From NCBI GenBank assembly GCA_004144175.1, contig SEFT01000008.1, positions 1 to 64,000 on the forward strand: a DNA stretch of 64,000 bases, written 5' to 3'. Made by a program: the position numbers and the translations under genes. The stretch is from Sphingobacteriales bacterium. Its GTDB lineage: Bacteria > Bacteroidota > Bacteroidia > Chitinophagales > Chitinophagaceae. Positions 34,918 through 42,299 of this stretch are shown here, in pieces; within the stretch, counting starts at the first letter, position 1; each line of letters starts with the position of its first letter. The notes under the pieces are model-generated. The model searched no databases and was not told the origin of the DNA. It worked only from the letters and a program-made list of their open reading frames with translations.

Positions 34918-36126
34918 ATGCTGAGGGTAGTAACTAAAATAGTAATAGAGCAGCAGACACCGCCAGAATACCCAACGGTACGCAACAATAAGTTTACAAT
35001 AGACTTTGTAAACGAATACCAGGGTGAAAGTAGTTGGGAGAACCTGACCGATACCTTTGAGGTGACACTGCCCAAAAGCGTATATGTGCTGGATAAATAC
35101 GGCAATAAATACAACCTCTTCGGCACCAATAAGAATATTGGCGGTGGTACGGATATCCCGCCGCTCTTCCTGAGAGGCGATAAGATAACCGTAGATGCGG
35201 GCTACTGGCACTACACCGAAACAGGAGTAGAAACGCTGAGCATGACCGGCACCGGCACAATACCGCATTTATTTGAGGGGTTTATTACTCAGGTGAAATC
35301 CGATACCCCTTTCACCCTGGAGTGTGAGGATTATTTCTATACACTAAAGCAAGTGCCCAGTCCTAAAAAGAACTGGAAAGGCGTAAGTATAGACGACATG
35401 ATACGCCAGCTGGTAAAGGGAACGGGGATCACGGTAAGCCAGAAGAGCAAGATAAGCATTGGCTGGACAGCCGGGCACTATTCGACCACCGGCGAAAGTG
35501 TGGCCACCGTATTATCTTCTTTGCGCAGCCAATGCCACTTGGAGTGTTATATGCGTGGCAAGGAGCTAAGGGTAGGCTACCCGATATACTACGAAGATGA
35601 GGCCCGGCAACTGGATTTCTGCTTTAACGGGGCAAAGGGCAATATCATACAGCATGATCTTACCTACCAGCGCAAGGATGATATAGTGTTAAGTGCAGTA
35701 GCCAGCAGCACAATGGTTACGATAGACGGCGTAGACGAAGATGGCACCCCAAAAGAAAAACGAAAGCAAATTGAACTACTGATCGTGCTGAAGAACGGCA
35801 GGTTTACAGTTATAGACATCGAAAAAGGGGAGAGCGTACCGCCGAATACAGAAGGGCAAAGAAGAGATTTCCCATTCACCGACAATACCCCACGGGATAA
35901 GATGATAATGATATCAAAGGAACGGCTGATGAAGTACTATTACGACGGCTTTAGCGGGTCCTTTACCACGTTCGGGCTGCCCTTTGTAAAGCATGGCGAC
36001 ACGGTGAACCTTACCGATGATATTATGCCGGAGCGTAACGGGCGGTACAAAGTGAAGCAAGTGGGCTATAATGGCGGCGTGAACGGTCTAAGGCAAACCA
36101 TTTCTTTAGACTATAAATTGCTGTAA
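34918..36126 (+). CDS. Baseplate hub protein (gpD/gp27-like)
   Basis: 402 residues. FTIDFVNEYQGESSWENLTD and the FEGFITQV segment belong to the first hub domain. KGVSIDDMIRQLVKGTGITV and TVLSSLRSQCHLECYMRGKE resemble the central domains of phage late-control gpD proteins. GLPFVKHGDTVNLTD ... GRYKVKQVGYNGG forms the end. The hub joins tube and spike at the tail tip. Confidence 0.78.
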   Translation: MLRVVTKIVIEQQTPPEYPTVRNNKFTIDFVNEYQGESSWENLTDTFEVTLPKSVYVLDKYGNKYNLFGTNKNIGGGTDIPPLFLRGDKITVDAGYWHYTETGVETLSMTGTGTIPHLFEGFITQVKSDTPFTLECEDYFYTLKQVPSPKKNWKGVSIDDMIRQLVKGTGITVSQKSKISIGWTAGHYSTTGESVATVLSSLRSQCHLECYMRGKELRVGYPIYYEDEARQLDFCFNGAKGNIIQHDLTYQRKDDIVLSAVASSTMVTIDGVDEDGTPKEKRKQIELLIVLKNGRFTVIDIEKGESVPPNTEGQRRDFPFTDNTPRDKMIMISKERLMKYYYDGFSGSFTTFGLPFVKHGDTVNLTDDIMPERNGRYKVKQVGYNGGVNGLRQTISLDYKLL

Positions 36127-36288: not shown

Positions 36289-36957
36289 ATGGCAATACCA
36301 ATACCGGAAGCGGTCCAAACACTGGCTGGATCAGAAAAATTTGATCGTAGGGCCACACTTATAGTGGCCGACGTACTGAGTGTAAACGAAACTAAAAAGA
36401 CCTGCGTAGTGAAGGAGGTGTGGCCATGGGGCGGGGTTCAGTGGCCCGATGTGGTGTATAAGACCTCCAGCGGATCGGGCGAAATGAGTACCCCGCAGGT
36501 GGGTAGTCAAGTACTTATGCTCTTCCAAACCAACGGCGACGCTTATATAATAGGCTTTGCAGAGCTGGATAAAAAGAGAATAACAGCCGCGCAGCAAATC
36601 AGTTTCCATGCAGGCACAGGGCTATTGCCAACCTTATCCAGTGTAAAGCTTACGCCGGATAGTATTGTGTCACAAGTACCGCAAGGGGGGAATGTAACAC
36701 TGTCGAAAAGCAAGACACAACTGAATGACGGCAGTTATGGCGGGTTAGCAATAGTGGAAGCTGTCGCTAGAGAATTGAACGCATTAAGAGAAGAGGTAAA
36801 TACGATAAAAGCAGCCATCACAGCACAAGCGCCAATCGATAGCCCTATTAAGGCGCAGGCTGTACTATCAAGTTTAACGACTTGGGGAGGCCAACTACTT
36901 ACCCCTGTCCCCAAGTCTGAGTTGGAAAATACAGATGTTACTCATGGTAAAATATAA
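36289..36957 (+). CDS. Baseplate spike protein (gpV/gp45-like)
   Basis: 222 residues. The N-terminal OB-fold pattern is visible (ATLIVADVLSVNETKKTCVV, then PQVGSQVLMLFQTNGDAYII). A beta region and a coiled-coil segment follow (IVEAVARELNALREEVNTIK). It ends KSELENTDVTHG, an ending common to spike proteins of this phage group. The spike punctures the outer membrane. Its stop codon is part of the 26-bp palindrome. Confidence 0.78.
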   Translation: MAIPIPEAVQTLAGSEKFDRRATLIVADVLSVNETKKTCVVKEVWPWGGVQWPDVVYKTSSGSGEMSTPQVGSQVLMLFQTNGDAYIIGFAELDKKRITAAQQISFHAGTGLLPTLSSVKLTPDSIVSQVPQGGNVTLSKSKTQLNDGSYGGLAIVEAVARELNALREEVNTIKAAITAQAPIDSPIKAQAVLSSLTTWGGQLLTPVPKSELENTDVTHGKI

Positions 36958-36980
36958 AGTGGAGGAATTCCTCCACTTTA
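36955..36980. terminator. Perfect 26-bp palindrome shared by two convergent genes
   Basis: Perfect 13+13 inverted repeat (half-site TAAAGTGGAGGAA). Its first three bases are the TAA stop of the spike gene and its last three are the reverse-strand stop of the gene at 36978. It should act as a terminator in both directions. A 25/26 match recurs at 43282-43307 inside the spanin gene. Confidence 0.8.
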
Positions 36981-37406
36981 TTCAACAACCTCTGGTTCTT
37001 GTATTTCTGCTGGCTTATTTTTCTTCTTGCCTGCATAGTAAGCCCCCGAACCAATAGCACCATGAGATAAGGCAAGAAGTAAGTATTTAGCAAACTCTTC
37101 TTTGCCCAGATAAAGAAGTATAATCAAAAAAGCTAAGCATATTACGAGTATCCCCACTACAAAGGAGCCTATAACAATGTATCCGTAACGGTCCTGCTTT
37201 GGCTTACCCTTAAGATAGTCGGCCTGTAGCTCTAATTGCTTTATCGCAATGCGCTCATGGCTCTCTATCTGCTTTTCATTAGACACCTGTTCGGCTAGTT
37301 TTACATCTAGCCGCTTATGCTCTACATCAAATATTTTGTGTACAAGCTCAGGGTCGTTAACAACTTTCGATTGCTGCTGCTGTGGTTTGTTTGGTTGTTG
37401 GGGCAT
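36978..37406 (-). CDS. Membrane protein with two spans (DUF2335-like pattern)
   Basis: 142 residues. Gln/Pro-rich start (MPQQPNKPQQQQSK), then a charged helix (about 25-70, HERIAIKQLELQADYLKGKP). Two hydrophobic helices follow (about 75-98 and 106-122), and a polar tail (KKKNKPAEIQEPEVVE). The helix-then-two-spans plan resembles DUF2335 phage membrane proteins. Part of the reverse-strand cassette; overlaps the upstream gene by 50 bp. Confidence 0.6.
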   Translation of the reverse strand: MPQQPNKPQQQQSKVVNDPELVHKIFDVEHKRLDVKLAEQVSNEKQIESHERIAIKQLELQADYLKGKPKQDRYGYIVIGSFVVGILVICLAFLIILLYLGKEEFAKYLLLALSHGAIGSGAYYAGKKKNKPAEIQEPEVVE

Positions 37407-37584
37407 AATGGTATTGTACGCGGAAATATCCTAAATGGGATGCCCCCAATTTAGGAACTATGAAAGTTACTTTCTCAATCCCGGCCCTGTTTGCCTTTGC
37501 GATCTTCAGAAATTGTCTTGCCCCCATCTTATGCGTTACACTGCCGAAAGCCCATCTAGCTACGTTGTTGAATGCGTTTGACAT
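37357..37584 (-). CDS. Small basic protein of the reverse-strand cassette
   Basis: 75 residues, basic, alpha/beta (SNAFNNVARWAFGSVTHKMG, then KVTFIVPKLGASHLGYFRVQ). No signal peptide. Its last 17 codons overlap the start of the next reverse gene in another frame. A perfect TAnnTTTG element sits 17-24 bp upstream. Not recognised. Confidence 0.5.
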   Translation of the reverse strand: MSNAFNNVARWAFGSVTHKMGARQFLKIAKANRAGIEKVTFIVPKLGASHLGYFRVQYHYAPTTKQTTAAAIESC

Positions 37585-37600
37585 AAGTTACAATTGTTTA

Positions 37601-37608
37601 CAAAAATA
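37601..37608 (-). promoter_or_regulatory. Promoter -7 element for the inner moron genes
   Basis: TATTTTTG on the reverse strand, a perfect TAnnTTTG, 17 bp upstream of the start codon at 37584. No TTTG lies at the ideal distance further upstream. It suggests the genes at 37584 and 37406 can be expressed in the prophage state. Confidence 0.5.
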
Positions 37609-37675
37609 GTAAATAATTCAAAAATTGTACCCACCATGTGTTATGGGGAAGTAAATTATATTTATATAGCCAAAG

Positions 37676-38407
37676 TTAATTGACTACAAAACTCCGCACC
37701 TTGTCGCACACCCTATAAATATAGCTGCCAGCAGGTAGATCTCCGCGCTGTATCAGTACATCGTTAAACTGGTCCGTAACTATCATTTGCTTCACCAATA
37801 CCCCGGCGCTGTTGTAAATGTTCAGGTTTGCTTGCCTTTGTCCTTCAGGTAATTTATAGGTGATTTTAGCGACTGTCTCTACGGGATTTGGGTAGATGCT
37901 TGTTTGGCTGGCTTCTCGGGCCTCTGGCTTTAGTCCAGTGTATGTGCCCGGTAAAGAATATACGTCCGTGGTCCCCTTAGTCTGTTTTACGACCAACAAC
38001 ATAGCCTTGCCATTTACATTCTTTACCTGGCAGCTTGAAGCATCTTCGAATGTTTGCAAAGTTTTACCATCTTCATCTACAATATAGCTCTTTGTCGTAG
38101 TGCCATTGTTTACCGTTACAAGCGCCTCTACCTTATTGTCGGCATTAAACAAGTTTTTTGATAAGTATATTGTGTAGAATGGCCGCGAAAATGGCCCCGG
38201 CAGCCCTGTATTTATTTCTTTATACAGCGAATGATCTACATTATAGACACTTATGCGACTGCCTGTAATTATAGCGTATTTCTGACCCTCGCCCTCAAGC
38301 GTTTCTACACTGTAACTTGTGCTGTTATAAGTATTTTCGAAAGTGGCTACCTGGGCAAAGGAATTAAACGAAGCCATTACGGCAACGCTGGTAAATATTT
38401 TCTTCAT
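37676..38407 (-). CDS. Secreted protein with T9SS type A C-terminal sorting domain
   Basis: 243 residues. N-terminal signal peptide (MKKIFTSVAVMASFNSFAQ, cleavage after Ala/Gln near 18-19). A middle region of about 150 residues is beta-rich and looks repeat-like (TYNSTSYSVETLEGEGQKYA). The C-terminal 75 residues are a T9SS sorting domain: SIYPNPVETVAKITY, LNIYNSAGVLVKQM, LPAGSYIYRV, ending in RSFVVN. Such proteins cross the outer membrane through the host type IX system and are anchored on the surface or released. Its place within a phage late region makes it a strong candidate lysogenic-conversion gene. What the middle region binds is unknown. Confidence 0.85.
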   Translation of the reverse strand: MKKIFTSVAVMASFNSFAQVATFENTYNSTSYSVETLEGEGQKYAIITGSRISVYNVDHSLYKEINTGLPGPFSRPFYTIYLSKNLFNADNKVEALVTVNNGTTTKSYIVDEDGKTLQTFEDASSCQVKNVNGKAMLLVVKQTKGTTDVYSLPGTYTGLKPEAREASQTSIYPNPVETVAKITYKLPEGQRQANLNIYNSAGVLVKQMIVTDQFNDVLIQRGDLPAGSYIYRVCDKVRSFVVN

Positions 38408-38418
38408 ATCAGTTGGTT

Positions 38419-38841
38419 TTAATTACATCCGTAAGCTACTTTGCCATCTACCACTAAGCAATTGCATATCCAATTATTCGGGTCGGCCCAGTCGCCACTT
38501 ATGTAAGTGAGTGTACATGTATATCTGGAGCGGACTTCAGCCCCAAAAGAGTTTTTTGAATCTACATAATGGTTAACGATATATTCATTCCCTGAATTTC
38601 TAACGCGCGGTTCCGCGAACATGCCGCCAAAATCGGCACTCGACGGAGATTTTAGCGCAGACTTTACGAAATTCTGAGAGATAACAAAGGCCTTATTGTT
38701 CGTTATTTCACTTGTACTGGTGTGTGATTCTTCAGTAGGTGAACTTTTATCGCTCGTAACTAACCTGAATATTACAAAGGCTATAAATAGCCCCAATCCC
38801 CATTTCATTACATTCCATGATTCCTTTCTGTTTTGTTCCAT
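38419..38841 (-). CDS. Membrane-anchored exported protein, possible superinfection exclusion
   Basis: 140 residues. A membrane anchor near 13-29 (WGLGLFIAFVIFRLVTS), a Ser/Thr linker, then a periplasmic domain: FVKSALKSPSSADFGGMFAE (about 58-77), YIVNHYVDSKNSFGAEVRSR (about 87-106), ending with three Cys (WICNCLV, YGCN). The S-P-S-S-A-x-F plus V-D-S-x-N-S-F-G-A-x-x-R pattern belongs to a widespread small periplasmic domain often carried by prophages. Transcribed just ahead of the T9SS protein (11 bp). Confidence 0.65.
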   Translation of the reverse strand: MEQNRKESWNVMKWGLGLFIAFVIFRLVTSDKSSPTEESHTSTSEITNNKAFVISQNFVKSALKSPSSADFGGMFAEPRVRNSGNEYIVNHYVDSKNSFGAEVRSRYTCTLTYISGDWADPNNWICNCLVVDGKVAYGCN

Positions 38842-38979
38842 GGCTATCTAAGTATTAGAAACAACAAAGCCTTGAATGGCAATATGATATACCGCAGCCA
38901 TTTCGGTAATCGCTTCTTTCTCATTATCGTGTGTTTTAGGCTTTAAATGTAATCATTCCTTATATCAATAGCAATGCCA

Positions 38980-39035: not shown

Positions 39036-39341
39036 ATGGCCGTAGACTACCTCTTAGACGATACCGGGGACCTGCTTTTTACAGGCGGCGACCTGGCCTA
39101 TGGCGAGAGTGACCCGCAGCATATTCAGGACACGATCAACGCTTATCCCGGCTGGTGGAAGGAATTCCCCGCAGACGGGGTAGGGATCAGAAGCTACCTG
39201 AACTCCAGCGGGCAAATGCAGAAGCTGGCCCGCGAGATAAAGATACAGCTGCAAAGTGACGGCTACGCAGTAAGCCCGGCACCAACCATCGATACCAGTA
39301 ACGGATCAATGACCGTGTACCCCAATGCCACAAGGATATAA
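39036..39341 (+). CDS. Baseplate protein, gpW/gp25-like
   Basis: 101 residues. DLLFTGGDLAYGESDPQHIQ (12-31) then YPGWWKEFPADGVGIRSYLN (37-56) and LAREIKIQLQSDGYAV fit the gp25-like baseplate wedge pattern in Bacteroidota phages. It starts a new + unit after the reverse-strand cassette. Confidence 0.72.
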   Translation: MAVDYLLDDTGDLLFTGGDLAYGESDPQHIQDTINAYPGWWKEFPADGVGIRSYLNSSGQMQKLAREIKIQLQSDGYAVSPAPTIDTSNGSMTVYPNATRI

Positions 39342-40341
39342 AACATATAGAACTGTATCGGACCAGAGTGTTTATGACCTCTGCCTGAATACCTATGGCA
39401 CATTGGATAGGCTGGGCCTACTGATGAAAGACAACGGTATTACCTCGGTAGCCCGCAGGCTGCCCGCAGGCACTTCTATTACTTACGACACTACCCTGGT
39501 AAACGATCAGCGTTTTAACGAGCAGGGTTTTACGTTCGCTACTAAAGCAAAAGTACCGGGCACACTGCTACTGGACCTGTACCCAAGTGCGGCGATAGCG
39601 GTAAGTACCCGCAAACTTAACAGCAACTACGGCGGCCCTGCCCTGCGACTGCGCCGGGAATCGGACAGCGTGGAAATGGATGTTTGGTTTAACGAAGACA
39701 ACAACCTGGACGTGCTGAATATGACGCAGTTCCTCAGCGGACAGACAGGGTATGTAGTAACCTGGTACGACCAAAGCGGCAACGGTAACCATCTGACACA
39801 GCCGACCGCCACGCGCCAGCCAATACTTTACAATTTCACCCTTGACAGGTACGCAGTAAAGAGCGACGGCAGTAACGACTTTATGTATGTACTGCTGAAT
39901 ACCCCTGTAACAAGGCCGATAACCTACCTGTTAGGGGCCAAGATAACAGGCGGTGCGGGTGAGCAGTTCGTACTACATAACCTTTCCAGCACCAATATAA
40001 ACGCGGCGCTGATAAGAAAGCTAGGCACCAACCGGGGTAGCTTCATGGGGCATACGTTCACTTACACCATGCCGTCCGATATGGAGGTGATCACCGTAAC
40101 CCGCAGCACCGCATCCGCGCAGTACTACCGCAATAACGTAGCGGTAACACCTACGCTAACGGGTAGTAGCAACCTGGATATAGCAAGGGTAAGACTATTT
40201 GCCGAGGTGAACGCAGCGCTTACTACGCCAACCAACCATGGGCTTTGCGAGGTGCCGGAACTGGTAATATGGAGCAGCGACTATTCACCCAACCTCCAGG
40301 CGATCAACAATAACATGAATAACTACTTTAAAATATACTAA
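39325..40341 (+). CDS. Tail fibre/tip protein: LysM-like N-terminus and lectin-like domain
   Basis: 338 residues. N-terminus (about 5-55, YKTYRTVSDQSVYDLCLNTY, then LPAGTSITYD) resembles a LysM/gpX-like module that anchors to baseplate. The C-terminal 240 residues contain ALRLRRESDSVEMDVWF ... YVVTWYDQSGNGNHLTQPTA, the pattern of the arabinofuranosidase-B-type/concanavalin-like domain used to bind sugars. A similar domain recurs in the gene at 41358. Likely host-receptor binding. Confidence 0.7.
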   Translation: MPQGYKTYRTVSDQSVYDLCLNTYGTLDRLGLLMKDNGITSVARRLPAGTSITYDTTLVNDQRFNEQGFTFATKAKVPGTLLLDLYPSAAIAVSTRKLNSNYGGPALRLRRESDSVEMDVWFNEDNNLDVLNMTQFLSGQTGYVVTWYDQSGNGNHLTQPTATRQPILYNFTLDRYAVKSDGSNDFMYVLLNTPVTRPITYLLGAKITGGAGEQFVLHNLSSTNINAALIRKLGTNRGSFMGHTFTYTMPSDMEVITVTRSTASAQYYRNNVAVTPTLTGSSNLDIARVRLFAEVNAALTTPTNHGLCEVPELVIWSSDYSPNLQAINNNMNNYFKIY

Positions 40342-41358
40342 ATGGGCTATACTTTTTTAAAGACAGGCAACCTATTTGAATTTACCCATACAAACGGGCG
40401 GAGCGAATCTACCAGCAAGCCATTAGAAATACTGATGGAGAATGGTATATTCTTCCTGAACGGGCTGGATAAAACAGGGCCGCTTACATTCCGTAAAGCG
40501 GACATAGACGATATAGGCGGTAGCGGCGTACCGGCAACAGATGAAGAAGTTAAAGATGCTATTGCAGCCTGTTTCCCGAACTCTACCAGCTCAGGCGGTG
40601 GTGGTGGCGGAGGCGGTGAAGTAACCATCCAAGGTGTTACGCCCGTAAGTGGGCGCTTGCCGGTATTGGCAAACATCAACACAGGACAAACCATAGGCGT
40701 AAGCGGTAATGTGGAAGTTACTAACGATTCCGGCAATCCACTACCGGTTAGCGGCTCGGTATCAATTACCGGCACGCCTGCTGTTGCTGTCTCTTCTGGC
40801 TCTATTACTGCGACCATATCAGGCACCCCCAACGTTACCCCGCAGGCTACAGAAAGCCACCTGGGCGAAGTAGGGGGCAATACCGTAGTAGTAGCGGCCA
40901 GCTTTACGAGGCCATCCGATACTGCACCTTATACCGCTTTGGATGTGGTGGGTAATACCGGCACGGCAGCGGTGATCACTTTTTCGGGGTTGGCCCGTAT
41001 CAATGGCGGCAGCGGCTACATTACCAAGTTGCGCATTATGACCGACCAGTCAACCAATACAGCCAGGTACAGGCTACACCTGTACAGTGTAGCGGTTACC
41101 GCCATTGCAGACAATTCGCCATTTACGCTTTTATGGACCAACAGGGCTAACCGCATAGGCGCTATAAGTGTAGATGCGGGATTGATCACCGAGGGTACAG
41201 GGTCTACCGCTGCATATGGTGGCACTTCTACCGTGCGTATGGCATACAAAGCAGCAACAGGCGCAACCGCTATATATGGGATACTGGAGACCTTGGACGC
41301 ATTTACACCGGCCAGCGCTCAAAACTTTTATATCGAACTAACCGCAGAGAATAACTAA
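40342..41358 (+). CDS. Tail fibre protein with polyglycine linker
   Basis: 338 residues. An N-terminal globular region (1-78) leads to an eight-Gly linker. A Val/Ser/Gly/Thr repeat stalk follows (about 92-165, e.g. SGNVEVTNDSGNPLPVSGSV) that resembles a triple beta-helix shaft, then a beta-rich tip domain (about 175-338). No charge clusters. It abuts its neighbours (1-bp gap/overlap), so all three fibre genes are co-expressed. Confidence 0.65.
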   Translation: MGYTFLKTGNLFEFTHTNGRSESTSKPLEILMENGIFFLNGLDKTGPLTFRKADIDDIGGSGVPATDEEVKDAIAACFPNSTSSGGGGGGGGEVTIQGVTPVSGRLPVLANINTGQTIGVSGNVEVTNDSGNPLPVSGSVSITGTPAVAVSSGSITATISGTPNVTPQATESHLGEVGGNTVVVAASFTRPSDTAPYTALDVVGNTGTAAVITFSGLARINGGSGYITKLRIMTDQSTNTARYRLHLYSVAVTAIADNSPFTLLWTNRANRIGAISVDAGLITEGTGSTAAYGGTSTVRMAYKAATGATAIYGILETLDAFTPASAQNFYIELTAENN

Positions 41359-42299
41359 TGCCTAACCTGATAAGAAACAGGCGCATATTGCAGCCATCTA
41401 CCACCTTTACCCCCTTGCTGGATACTTACGGCACAGGGGTAAAAAGTGCGTGGAGTATGCGGAAACTGAAGGGAAGCGCTACATCTCCTTTCAGGGTGCG
41501 CAGGGGTAGCGACAGCGTAGAGATGGATGTAGGCTTTGTAGGGCAGGAAGCCGACACGGCGGGCATGTTGAACTTCCTTGCTGGTAGCGACGGCTTTATA
41601 ACTACCATATATGACCAAAGCGGGAACGCACAGCACCTTACGCAAACATCGGTAACGGCGCAGTTCAAGATAGCCAATGCGGGCGTATTGGTAACTGAGA
41701 ACAACAAGGCATTCAACAGCGCGGACGGTGTGAATGATTTTATGTCAGTGAACTCATCTACAGCTTATTATAAGTTCCTGCATGACGGCACTGCCGACTA
41801 CTATATATTCTCTGTACAGAAATTCGGCACCACTAGTAACCCCGATACCCGCTATACGCTACTATGTTCGGCATCGGCCACTACCGCAGTAGGTAAGTGG
41901 TTGCTGTATGATGACAGGTCTGGCAGCGCCAATAACAACGCCGTATCGGGCATTATATACCGTGGGGTGAGCAGCACCACCGCCGCTACCTCGATGACGC
42001 AAAACGCCATCAACCCTAACCAGCTCATGCAGATGACAACGGTAGGCAGCCCGGGCAATGCTACCGCAGCCGATAGGCTCTACTGGCATATAAACAGCGG
42101 GGCCGCACTTAAAAGCAACGTGTCTACATCTACGGTATCGACCGCTAATGCTACAGCAGACCTGCGGGTAGGCGCTACCAATGCGGGTAGTGTGCTCTTT
42201 TTAGGAGGTATCGGCGAGATCATCATGTACACGGGTGATATGTCGGCCAACAGAGCATCGATAGAAGCAAACCAAAAGACATATTGGGGCACACCATAA
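41358..42299 (+). CDS. Lectin-like fibre/receptor-binding protein
   Basis: 313 residues. SPFRVRRGSDSVEMDVGFVG (about 43-62) and FITTIYDQSGNAQHLTQTSV repeat the domain seen in the fibre at 39325, which indicates duplication. The C-terminal part is a concanavalin-like beta sandwich (FSVQKFGTTSNPDTRYTLLC). It lacks the LysM-like N-terminus. Confidence 0.65.
   Translation: MPNLIRNRRILQPSTTFTPLLDTYGTGVKSAWSMRKLKGSATSPFRVRRGSDSVEMDVGFVGQEADTAGMLNFLAGSDGFITTIYDQSGNAQHLTQTSVTAQFKIANAGVLVTENNKAFNSADGVNDFMSVNSSTAYYKFLHDGTADYYIFSVQKFGTTSNPDTRYTLLCSASATTAVGKWLLYDDRSGSANNNAVSGIIYRGVSSTTAATSMTQNAINPNQLMQMTTVGSPGNATAADRLYWHINSGAALKSNVSTSTVSTANATADLRVGATNAGSVLFLGGIGEIIMYTGDMSANRASIEANQKTYWGTP

What the first reader, a model, noticed from the sequence alone, without database searches (positions are those of the whole stretch)
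36978..38841. Moron cassette in a prophage that carries its own T9SS cargo protein
Seen: four reverse-strand genes split the + strand late region between spike and gp25-like genes, and one (37676-38407) has a signal peptide and a complete T9SS type A sorting domain. Known: the host T9SS exports proteins by this domain to the cell surface. Inference: the lysogen would display or release a phage-encoded protein through the host's own secretion machine, changing adhesion, gliding or phage receptors. The adjacent periplasmic-domain protein (38419-38841) could block DNA entry of related phages. I know of few described cases of prophage cargo for T9SS.
Basis: partly seen in the sequence, partly recalled or inferred. 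Interest (0 to 1): 0.85.

Follow-up and report, generated by a model that had tools for sequence, protein, structure and literature searches.

The report
Phage-carried protein for host's secretion machine
A prophage in a Bacteroidota genome carries, backwards inside its tail genes, a gene for a protein tagged for export to the cell surface by the bacterium's own type IX secretion system, and related genes sit in other prophages, twice beside the phage repressor, which suggests that the dormant virus uses it to change its host's surface.

Summary
The four reverse-strand genes are there, and 37676-38407 has a sorting domain over both curated cut-offs (PF18962 31.5 bits, cut-off 27; TIGR04183 29.8, cut-off 23). 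The host has SprA, PorU and at least 150 other sorting-domain matches. The insert behaves as a moron: 20 of 20 other genomes with related tail modules lack the cargo at this site (spike to gp25-like gap -4 to 39 nt in 13, about 213-501 in 7), against 2078 nt here. The three family members found in the host all lie at the spike gene of three divergent prophages. Two Mu-like prophages elsewhere carry relatives directly downstream of S24-type repressors, which points to expression in the lysogen. Otherwise the family is mainly chromosomal: one propeller-like module plus sorting domain; its phage/chromosome label changed at least three times. Best reading: lysogenic conversion of the cell surface by a type IX cargo, superinfection exclusion being the likeliest benefit, untested. 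Phage-encoded T9SS cargo was reported before (PMC7468147), so the kind is known; I found no report of this family or its repressor linkage.

The parts
37676..38407 (-). T9SS cargo protein, 243 aa: signal peptide (by eye), one propeller-like module (about residues 20-160), type A sorting domain (171-242)
38419..38841 (-). 140-aa protein, one N-terminal hydrophobic segment (by eye) then a soluble domain of phage families of unknown function (phrog_13160, phrog_2320); 11 nt upstream of the cargo gene, so probably one transcript (inference)
37357..37584 (-). 75-aa protein, phrog_2711; second reverse unit with a TATTTTTG box 16 nt before its start codon
36978..37406 (-). 142-aa protein, phrog_2720, hydrophobic stretches in its second half (by eye); forms a gene pair with phrog_2711 also in two other genomes
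36954..36981 (.). 28-bp perfect palindrome where the spike gene and the cassette end head-on; possible terminator (the terminator scan did not list it and found no excess over shuffles)
36289..36957 (+). baseplate spike (label by position; sub-threshold PF04717)
39036..39341 (+). gp25-like baseplate gene (label by position)
34918..36126 (+). baseplate hub, phrog_4930; about 27% identical to hubs of Winoviridae phages

Best explanation
The insert 36978-38841 is a moron in a contractile-tail prophage distantly related to Winoviridae. Its cargo gene belongs to a Bacteroidota family of secreted proteins, from which phages probably took it. In the lysogen the protein passes the inner membrane by its signal peptide, is recognised through its C-terminal domain by the host's T9SS (SprA, PorU and partners), and is fixed on or released from the cell surface, where its propeller-like domain binds something. 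The most likely benefit is protection of the lysogen, and so of the prophage, by masking or altering a surface structure that related phages use (superinfection exclusion at the surface), perhaps together with the envelope companion 38419-38841. Shown by sequence: sorting domain, host machinery, absence of the insert from relatives, recurrence in several phage types, repressor linkage in two. Inferred: direction of transfer, expression in the lysogen, actual export, and the exclusion function.
For: Sorting domain over the PF18962 cut-off in the window copy, both sister prophages, G006, G352, G267 and G013. Host SprA 2582 bits, PorU 1195 bits. The 3 full-length family members found in the 4.34-Mb host lie at a spike gene in three prophages: 17 nt (C77) and 35 nt (C89) from it, and in the window between spike and gp25-like gene with the phrog pair in between; pairwise cargo identity 42-49%. 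20 of 20 other genomes with related tail modules and 3 isolate phages have no cargo there. In G006 the cargo starts 4 nt after an HTH/S24 repressor, divergent from a transposase (phrog_310); in G352 the order is S24 repressor, lipoprotein (by eye), cargo, divergent from a transposase 42% identical to that of G006. The cargo frame is open in C89 although that prophage looks degraded. The sorting domain is clearly better conserved than the exposed module in one of three pairs (45/73 against 62/142, C88/C89), slightly in the other two (37/78 against 57/136; 35/73 against 55/123).
Against: No expression data. No Bacteroidota -7 box found upstream of 38841 or of the cassettes in C77 and C89; sigma-70-like and terminator-like sites no more than in shuffles. 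No PADLOC match for the cargo or the three companions scanned. Most family members are chromosomal as far as tested: phage genes near 1 of 76 GTDB loci and 7 of 35 rows examined from the Chitinophagaceae search, 8 with the G013 element, so the basic role need not concern phages. No relative in 50,697 phage records at E 0.1 or in three IMG/VR scans. Related tail modules mostly do without the gene.
Confidence: 0.55

Rival explanations
1. Lysogenic conversion for the host's benefit unrelated to phages: the cargo is an adhesin, sugar-binding or competition protein that raises host fitness, as its chromosomal relatives presumably do.
For: Most relatives look chromosomal and carry one or three modules plus a sorting domain; a propeller-like fold fits ligand binding (weak matches).
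Against: Does not by itself explain the coupling with repressors and with extra envelope proteins, though it is compatible with both.
Confidence: 0.31
2. Virion component: the gene is a late structural accessory of the baseplate, placed on the other strand by inversion.
For: It lies at baseplate genes in three prophages.
Against: Sorting domain and apparent signal peptide; opposite strand; absent at this site in 20 of 20 other genomes and 3 isolate phages; relatives in repressor operons and in chromosomes.
Confidence: 0.04
3. Neutral passenger: a host gene caught in the prophages and not selected.
For: No promoter could be named for the cargo unit; one relative (G019) is frame-broken.
Against: Open frames with a sorting domain over cut-off in 7 of 8 phage- or element-borne copies; three copies in one host at 42-49% identity, one kept open in a degraded prophage.
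Confidence: 0.1

Closest known systems
Cryophage T9SS cargo genes (PMC7468147, Nat Commun 2020; passages read)
   Same: Phage genes with type A sorting domains, variable between phage variants; authors suggest superinfection exclusion or inter-strain competition
   Different: Those are an endoglucanase, a GH39 and a PA14 protein; here a small propeller-like family in prophages, recurrent in several phage types and twice next to the repressor
crAss-like contigs with BACON and T9SS sorting domains (PMC6949934, Viruses 2019; passages read)
   Same: Sorting-domain genes in phage contigs
   Different: BACON proteins and sorting-domain genes near the head section; no reverse moron or repressor link in the passages seen
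Uncultured Caudovirales proteins named 'Secretion system C-terminal sorting domain' in BFVD
   Same: Viral proteins named for the same sorting domain
   Different: Matched weakly, by structure (TM about 0.2-0.3); genome context not seen
Phage-encoded receptor-blocking or surface-converting morons of other bacteria (recalled, no call)
   Same: Small lysogeny-expressed gene changing the lysogen's surface
   Different: They use other export routes, not T9SS

Membership tests
T9SS type A cargo | C-terminal sorting domain | tested here: met
   PF18962 31.5 bits (cut-off 27), TIGR04183 29.8 (23); the family profile also matches solved sorting domains 8glj and 8glk
T9SS type A cargo | Sec signal peptide | tested here: inconclusive
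   by eye only; Q19 invariant in 11 aligned rows
T9SS type A cargo | Host has a T9SS | tested here: met
   SprA and PorU over cut-off; other components not searched
T9SS type A cargo | Exported, and cleaved or anchored, by T9SS | not testable with these tools
   needs a mutant and proteomics
Phage moron | Extra gene absent from related phages | tested here: met
   no cargo at the site in 20 of 20 other genomes (gap -4 to 39 nt in 13; 213-226 in 4; about 226, 238 and 501 in 3 where the spike is placed by gene order only) and in 3 isolate phages
Phage moron | Own promoter and terminator | tested here: inconclusive
   -7 box only for the 37584 unit; 28-bp palindrome; scans not above shuffles
Phage moron | Expressed in the lysogen | not testable with these tools
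   indirect only: repressor-operon position of relatives
Superinfection exclusion protein | Match to a described defence family | tested here: not met
   PADLOC at E 0.1: none for the cargo and 4 of 5 other proteins scanned; one weak hit (PtuB, E 0.022) for 36978-37406
Superinfection exclusion protein | Lysogen resists related phages through it | not testable with these tools
   needs plating and adsorption tests
Winoviridae | Homologous baseplate hub and tail gene order | tested here: met
   about 27% identity over 93-96% to hubs of Peternella_1, lotta8-2 and FPSV phages; order read from annotation
Winoviridae | Genome-wide relatedness as used for the family | not tested
   left end of the prophage is missing

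The most novel reading that the evidence does not exclude
Temperate phages of Bacteroidota form a guild that repeatedly recruits one family of small propeller-like type IX cargo proteins, expresses them from the lysogeny control region or from a reverse-strand moron, and uses the host's T9SS to put a phage-specific coat protein on the lysogen that excludes competing phages.
Probability: 0.3. Interest if true: 0.8.

Novelty: new variant of a known kind. Interest (0 to 1): 0.56.

Why it matters
Surface conversion by prophages is well known in Proteobacteria (recalled), but for Bacteroidota, whose surface proteins are largely delivered by T9SS, my searches found little. A phage-borne gene family that carries the T9SS address label, sits twice beside a repressor, and consists of single genes that are easily deleted makes the question 'do prophages remodel the Bacteroidota surface through T9SS?' directly testable. 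At least one genome with a repressor-linked relative (Chitinophagaceae bacterium IBVUCB1, record title) bears a strain name and is not marked as a MAG.

Tried and rejected
Searches for cargo relatives in phage records and IMG/VR gave nothing; the hub found no IMG/VR relative either. The idea that all family members are phage-borne was rejected. The idea that the 301-aa companion in sister prophage C77 is a TonB-C protein got no Pfam match; it has no relative but itself in 196 genomes. phrog_2711/phrog_2720 looked phage-specific but the pair also lies among host-like genes in G035 and G020, so I claim no phage role for that half. Foldseek gave only weak matches (best E 2.9e-3 for the module; five at E <= 0.001 for the whole protein with TM 0.2-0.31), so no ligand is proposed. 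My phage-context test used 110 phage proteins from this and related prophages and would miss other phage kinds; several stretches were short contigs. My first count of empty sites (gap of 39 nt or less) did not hold for all relatives: one search added seven with 213-501 nt; two of these show a short same-strand ORF in the gap and none shows cargo. Odds for the best reading were lowered from 0.6 to 0.55 on checking, because the sorting-domain conservation is clear in one pair only and the 'head protease' beside the G267/G019 copies is sub-threshold.

Full report
What is there. Between a + strand spike-like gene (36289-36957) and a + strand gp25-like gene (39036-39341) lie four minus-strand ORFs. 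Host genes on the right (ABC transporter, threonyl-tRNA synthetase, IF-3) and phage genes to the left (terminase, portal, sheath, tape measure, hub, endolysin, Erf, replication initiator) show an integrated contractile-tail phage. The contig begins at window base 1, so the left end is missing; no integrase or repressor was identified, but only six of the early-region proteins were scanned.

The cargo. 37676-38407 matches PF18962 and TIGR04183 above both curated cut-offs. The host has at least 150 other TIGR04183 matches over cut-off (capped at 150 scored of 206), SprA at 2582 bits and PorU at 1195 bits, so the export route exists. AlphaFold2 on a 49-row alignment gives mean pLDDT 88.2, pTM 0.66; the exposed module alone, with 72 rows, gives 91.4 and pTM 0.85 with 11 strands. 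The PDB matches that Foldseek lists for the module are mostly beta-propellers by their titles (BBS1, NHL domains, neuraminidases, designed Cake3 and Bagel4, surface-layer protein BACUNI_02894), but none has E <= 0.001; 'propeller-like, about three blades' is therefore an inference. Relatives of about 530 aa, mostly from Flavobacteriaceae contigs, hold up to three such modules in tandem before one sorting domain. In the 49-row set, 46 members match TIGR04183.

It is a moron. In the own genome (97.6% complete) I found three members with the module; the other 13 rows align with the C-terminal part only. All three lie at the spike gene of a prophage, on the opposite strand: C77 (17 nt from the spike), C89 (35 nt) and the window, where the phrog_2711/2720 pair lies between. 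The prophages are divergent: hub 46-48%, spike 29-36%, cargo 43-49% identical to the window's. In C77 the gp25-like gene is 74% identical to the window's, and the insert holds the cargo plus a 301-aa protein with an apparent signal peptide. C89 was read over its whole contig; no sheath or gp25-like gene was matched there, yet its cargo frame is open and passes the PF18962 cut-off.

Control for the site. I examined all 15 other genomes with a hub match (16 of 394 with G000), the four further genomes from the spike search, and G019: 20 in all. The spike to gp25-like gap is -4 to 39 nt in 13, 213-226 nt in four, and in three, where the spike gene is placed by order only, about 226, 238 and 501 nt. 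In two of these last three a short same-strand ORF fills the gap. None holds the cargo module there. Three isolate phages of Winoviridae (Winogradskyella phage Peternella_1, Flavobacterium phages lotta8-2 and FPSV-S1) have the two genes -11, 3 and 1 nt apart, by order and size. Here the gap is 2078 nt and in C77 1882.

Other phages carry it elsewhere. In G006 (also found as L093, Chitinophagaceae bacterium IBVUCB1) the cargo lies 4 nt downstream of an HTH/S24 repressor, divergent from a transposase (phrog_310); the adjoining tail module, probably of the same prophage, has an empty spike/gp25 site. In G352 the order repressor (S24), lipoprotein (by eye), cargo is found again, divergent from a transposase 42% identical to that of G006. 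In G267, and frame-broken in G019, the gene lies divergent from a phage gene that resembles a head protease only below cut-off, followed by a capsid gene over cut-off; the two genomes share this phage (96-99.7% protein identity), so they count as one case. In G013 the gene lies in an element with a tyrosine integrase and a terminase small subunit but no other phage match. A gene in the repressor operon of two prophages is best explained by expression during lysogeny; that inference is carried over to the window copy.

How widespread. The module was found in 11 of 196 relatives (single sequence) and in 22 of 394 family genomes (profile; 38 rows, with at most 9 candidates scored per genome). I fetched the surroundings of 35 of these 38 rows; with 110 phage query proteins, 7 of the 35 showed phage genes (three in G000, G006, G352, G267, G019), and G013 adds an eighth by its integrase and terminase. 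Four more loci (G007, G008, G168, G194) showed none. Of 76 GTDB loci, 1 (the G006 locus) showed phage genes. In a tree of 90 rows (the window plus 89 of the 113 found; copies, fragments and three-module proteins dropped) the 8 phage or element rows need 4 changes of label against 7.8 in shuffles, 0 of 500 as low, and starred branches force at least 3; gains and losses are not told apart. The window copy and its two sisters form a starred clade; with the two repressor-linked copies they fall together with three non-phage rows (support 97/63, not starred). Transfer from chromosomes to phages is the natural reading, since most members are chromosomal, but the root is not fixed.

Selection. Between prophage copies the sorting domain is clearly more alike than the exposed module in one pair (C88/C89, 45/73 against 62/142), slightly in the others (C88/C77 37/78 against 57/136; C77/C89 35/73 against 55/123). 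This fits a constant address label with a changing exposed face, weakly.

The rest of the cassette. 38419-38841 lies 11 nt upstream of the cargo and matches phage families of unknown function (phrog_13160, 1e-15); it has relatives in 2 other genomes of 196 and in 4 phage records. The pair phrog_2711/phrog_2720 (37357-37584, 36978-37406) forms a second unit with a TATTTTTG box. The pair is also found in G035 and G020, among host-like genes without a match to the 110 phage proteins; phrog_2720 alone is matched in G065. No promoter could be named for the cargo unit.

Mechanism and limits. Best reading: lysogenic conversion of the surface through T9SS, with superinfection exclusion as likeliest benefit. 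In three of the cassettes the cargo travels with a different protein that looks envelope-targeted (window 140 aa, C77 301 aa, G352 lipoprotein; by eye), which suits an exclusion role but is only an association. No defence model matched the cargo. Conversion of some kind I put at about 0.86, exclusion at about 0.55.

Prior work. Library searches gave two directly relevant papers, of which I read passages: PMC7468147 (Cryophage, three cargo genes, superinfection exclusion suggested) and PMC6949934. In PMC10367356, on phages of Porphyromonas gingivalis, a term search found no mention of T9SS. Those searches gave no description of this family in phages, but the library lacks most subscription papers and holds no preprints.

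Noticed in passing
L056:336-608 and L056:7790-9220 (contig C77): The sister prophage in C77 has its terminase close to host-like genes (one SurE-like by eye), while a fragment at the very start of the contig is 60% identical to an early gene of the window phage: a prophage that lost or was separated from its early region.
   Followed up: no
L060/L061 (contig C89): Degraded-looking sister prophage with a tyrosine integrase and a Prim-Pol gene near tail genes; the cargo gene is still open.
   Followed up: partly
window 39325-40341 and 41358-42299: Two separate proteins in the tail region match the alpha-L-arabinofuranosidase B catalytic domain over cut-off (PF09206, 3e-8 and 2e-10): possible glycan-binding tail fibres.
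   Followed up: no
L214:1657-2361: A DnaJ-like gene (by eye) lies between the gp25-like gene and the next small tail gene of the G019 phage.
   Followed up: no
L044:1959-7629: Three tandem pairs of tail-collar-like (microcystin-dependent-protein-like, by eye) genes lie upstream of a chromosomal cargo relative in G007.
   Followed up: no
L230:9095-9532 and next frame upstream, L231:9681-10341: The gene pair phrog_2711/phrog_2720 lies among host-like genes in two Chitinophagaceae genomes, so it may move between phages and chromosomes.
   Followed up: partly
L062 and L063: A contig filed under an alphaproteobacterial MAG carries a near-copy of a Bacteroidales family member: perhaps a misbinned contig.
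   Followed up: no
window 38845-38922, minus strand: A short ORF of about 25 codons for a small basic, hydrophobic peptide lies just upstream of 38841 (read by eye).
   Followed up: no
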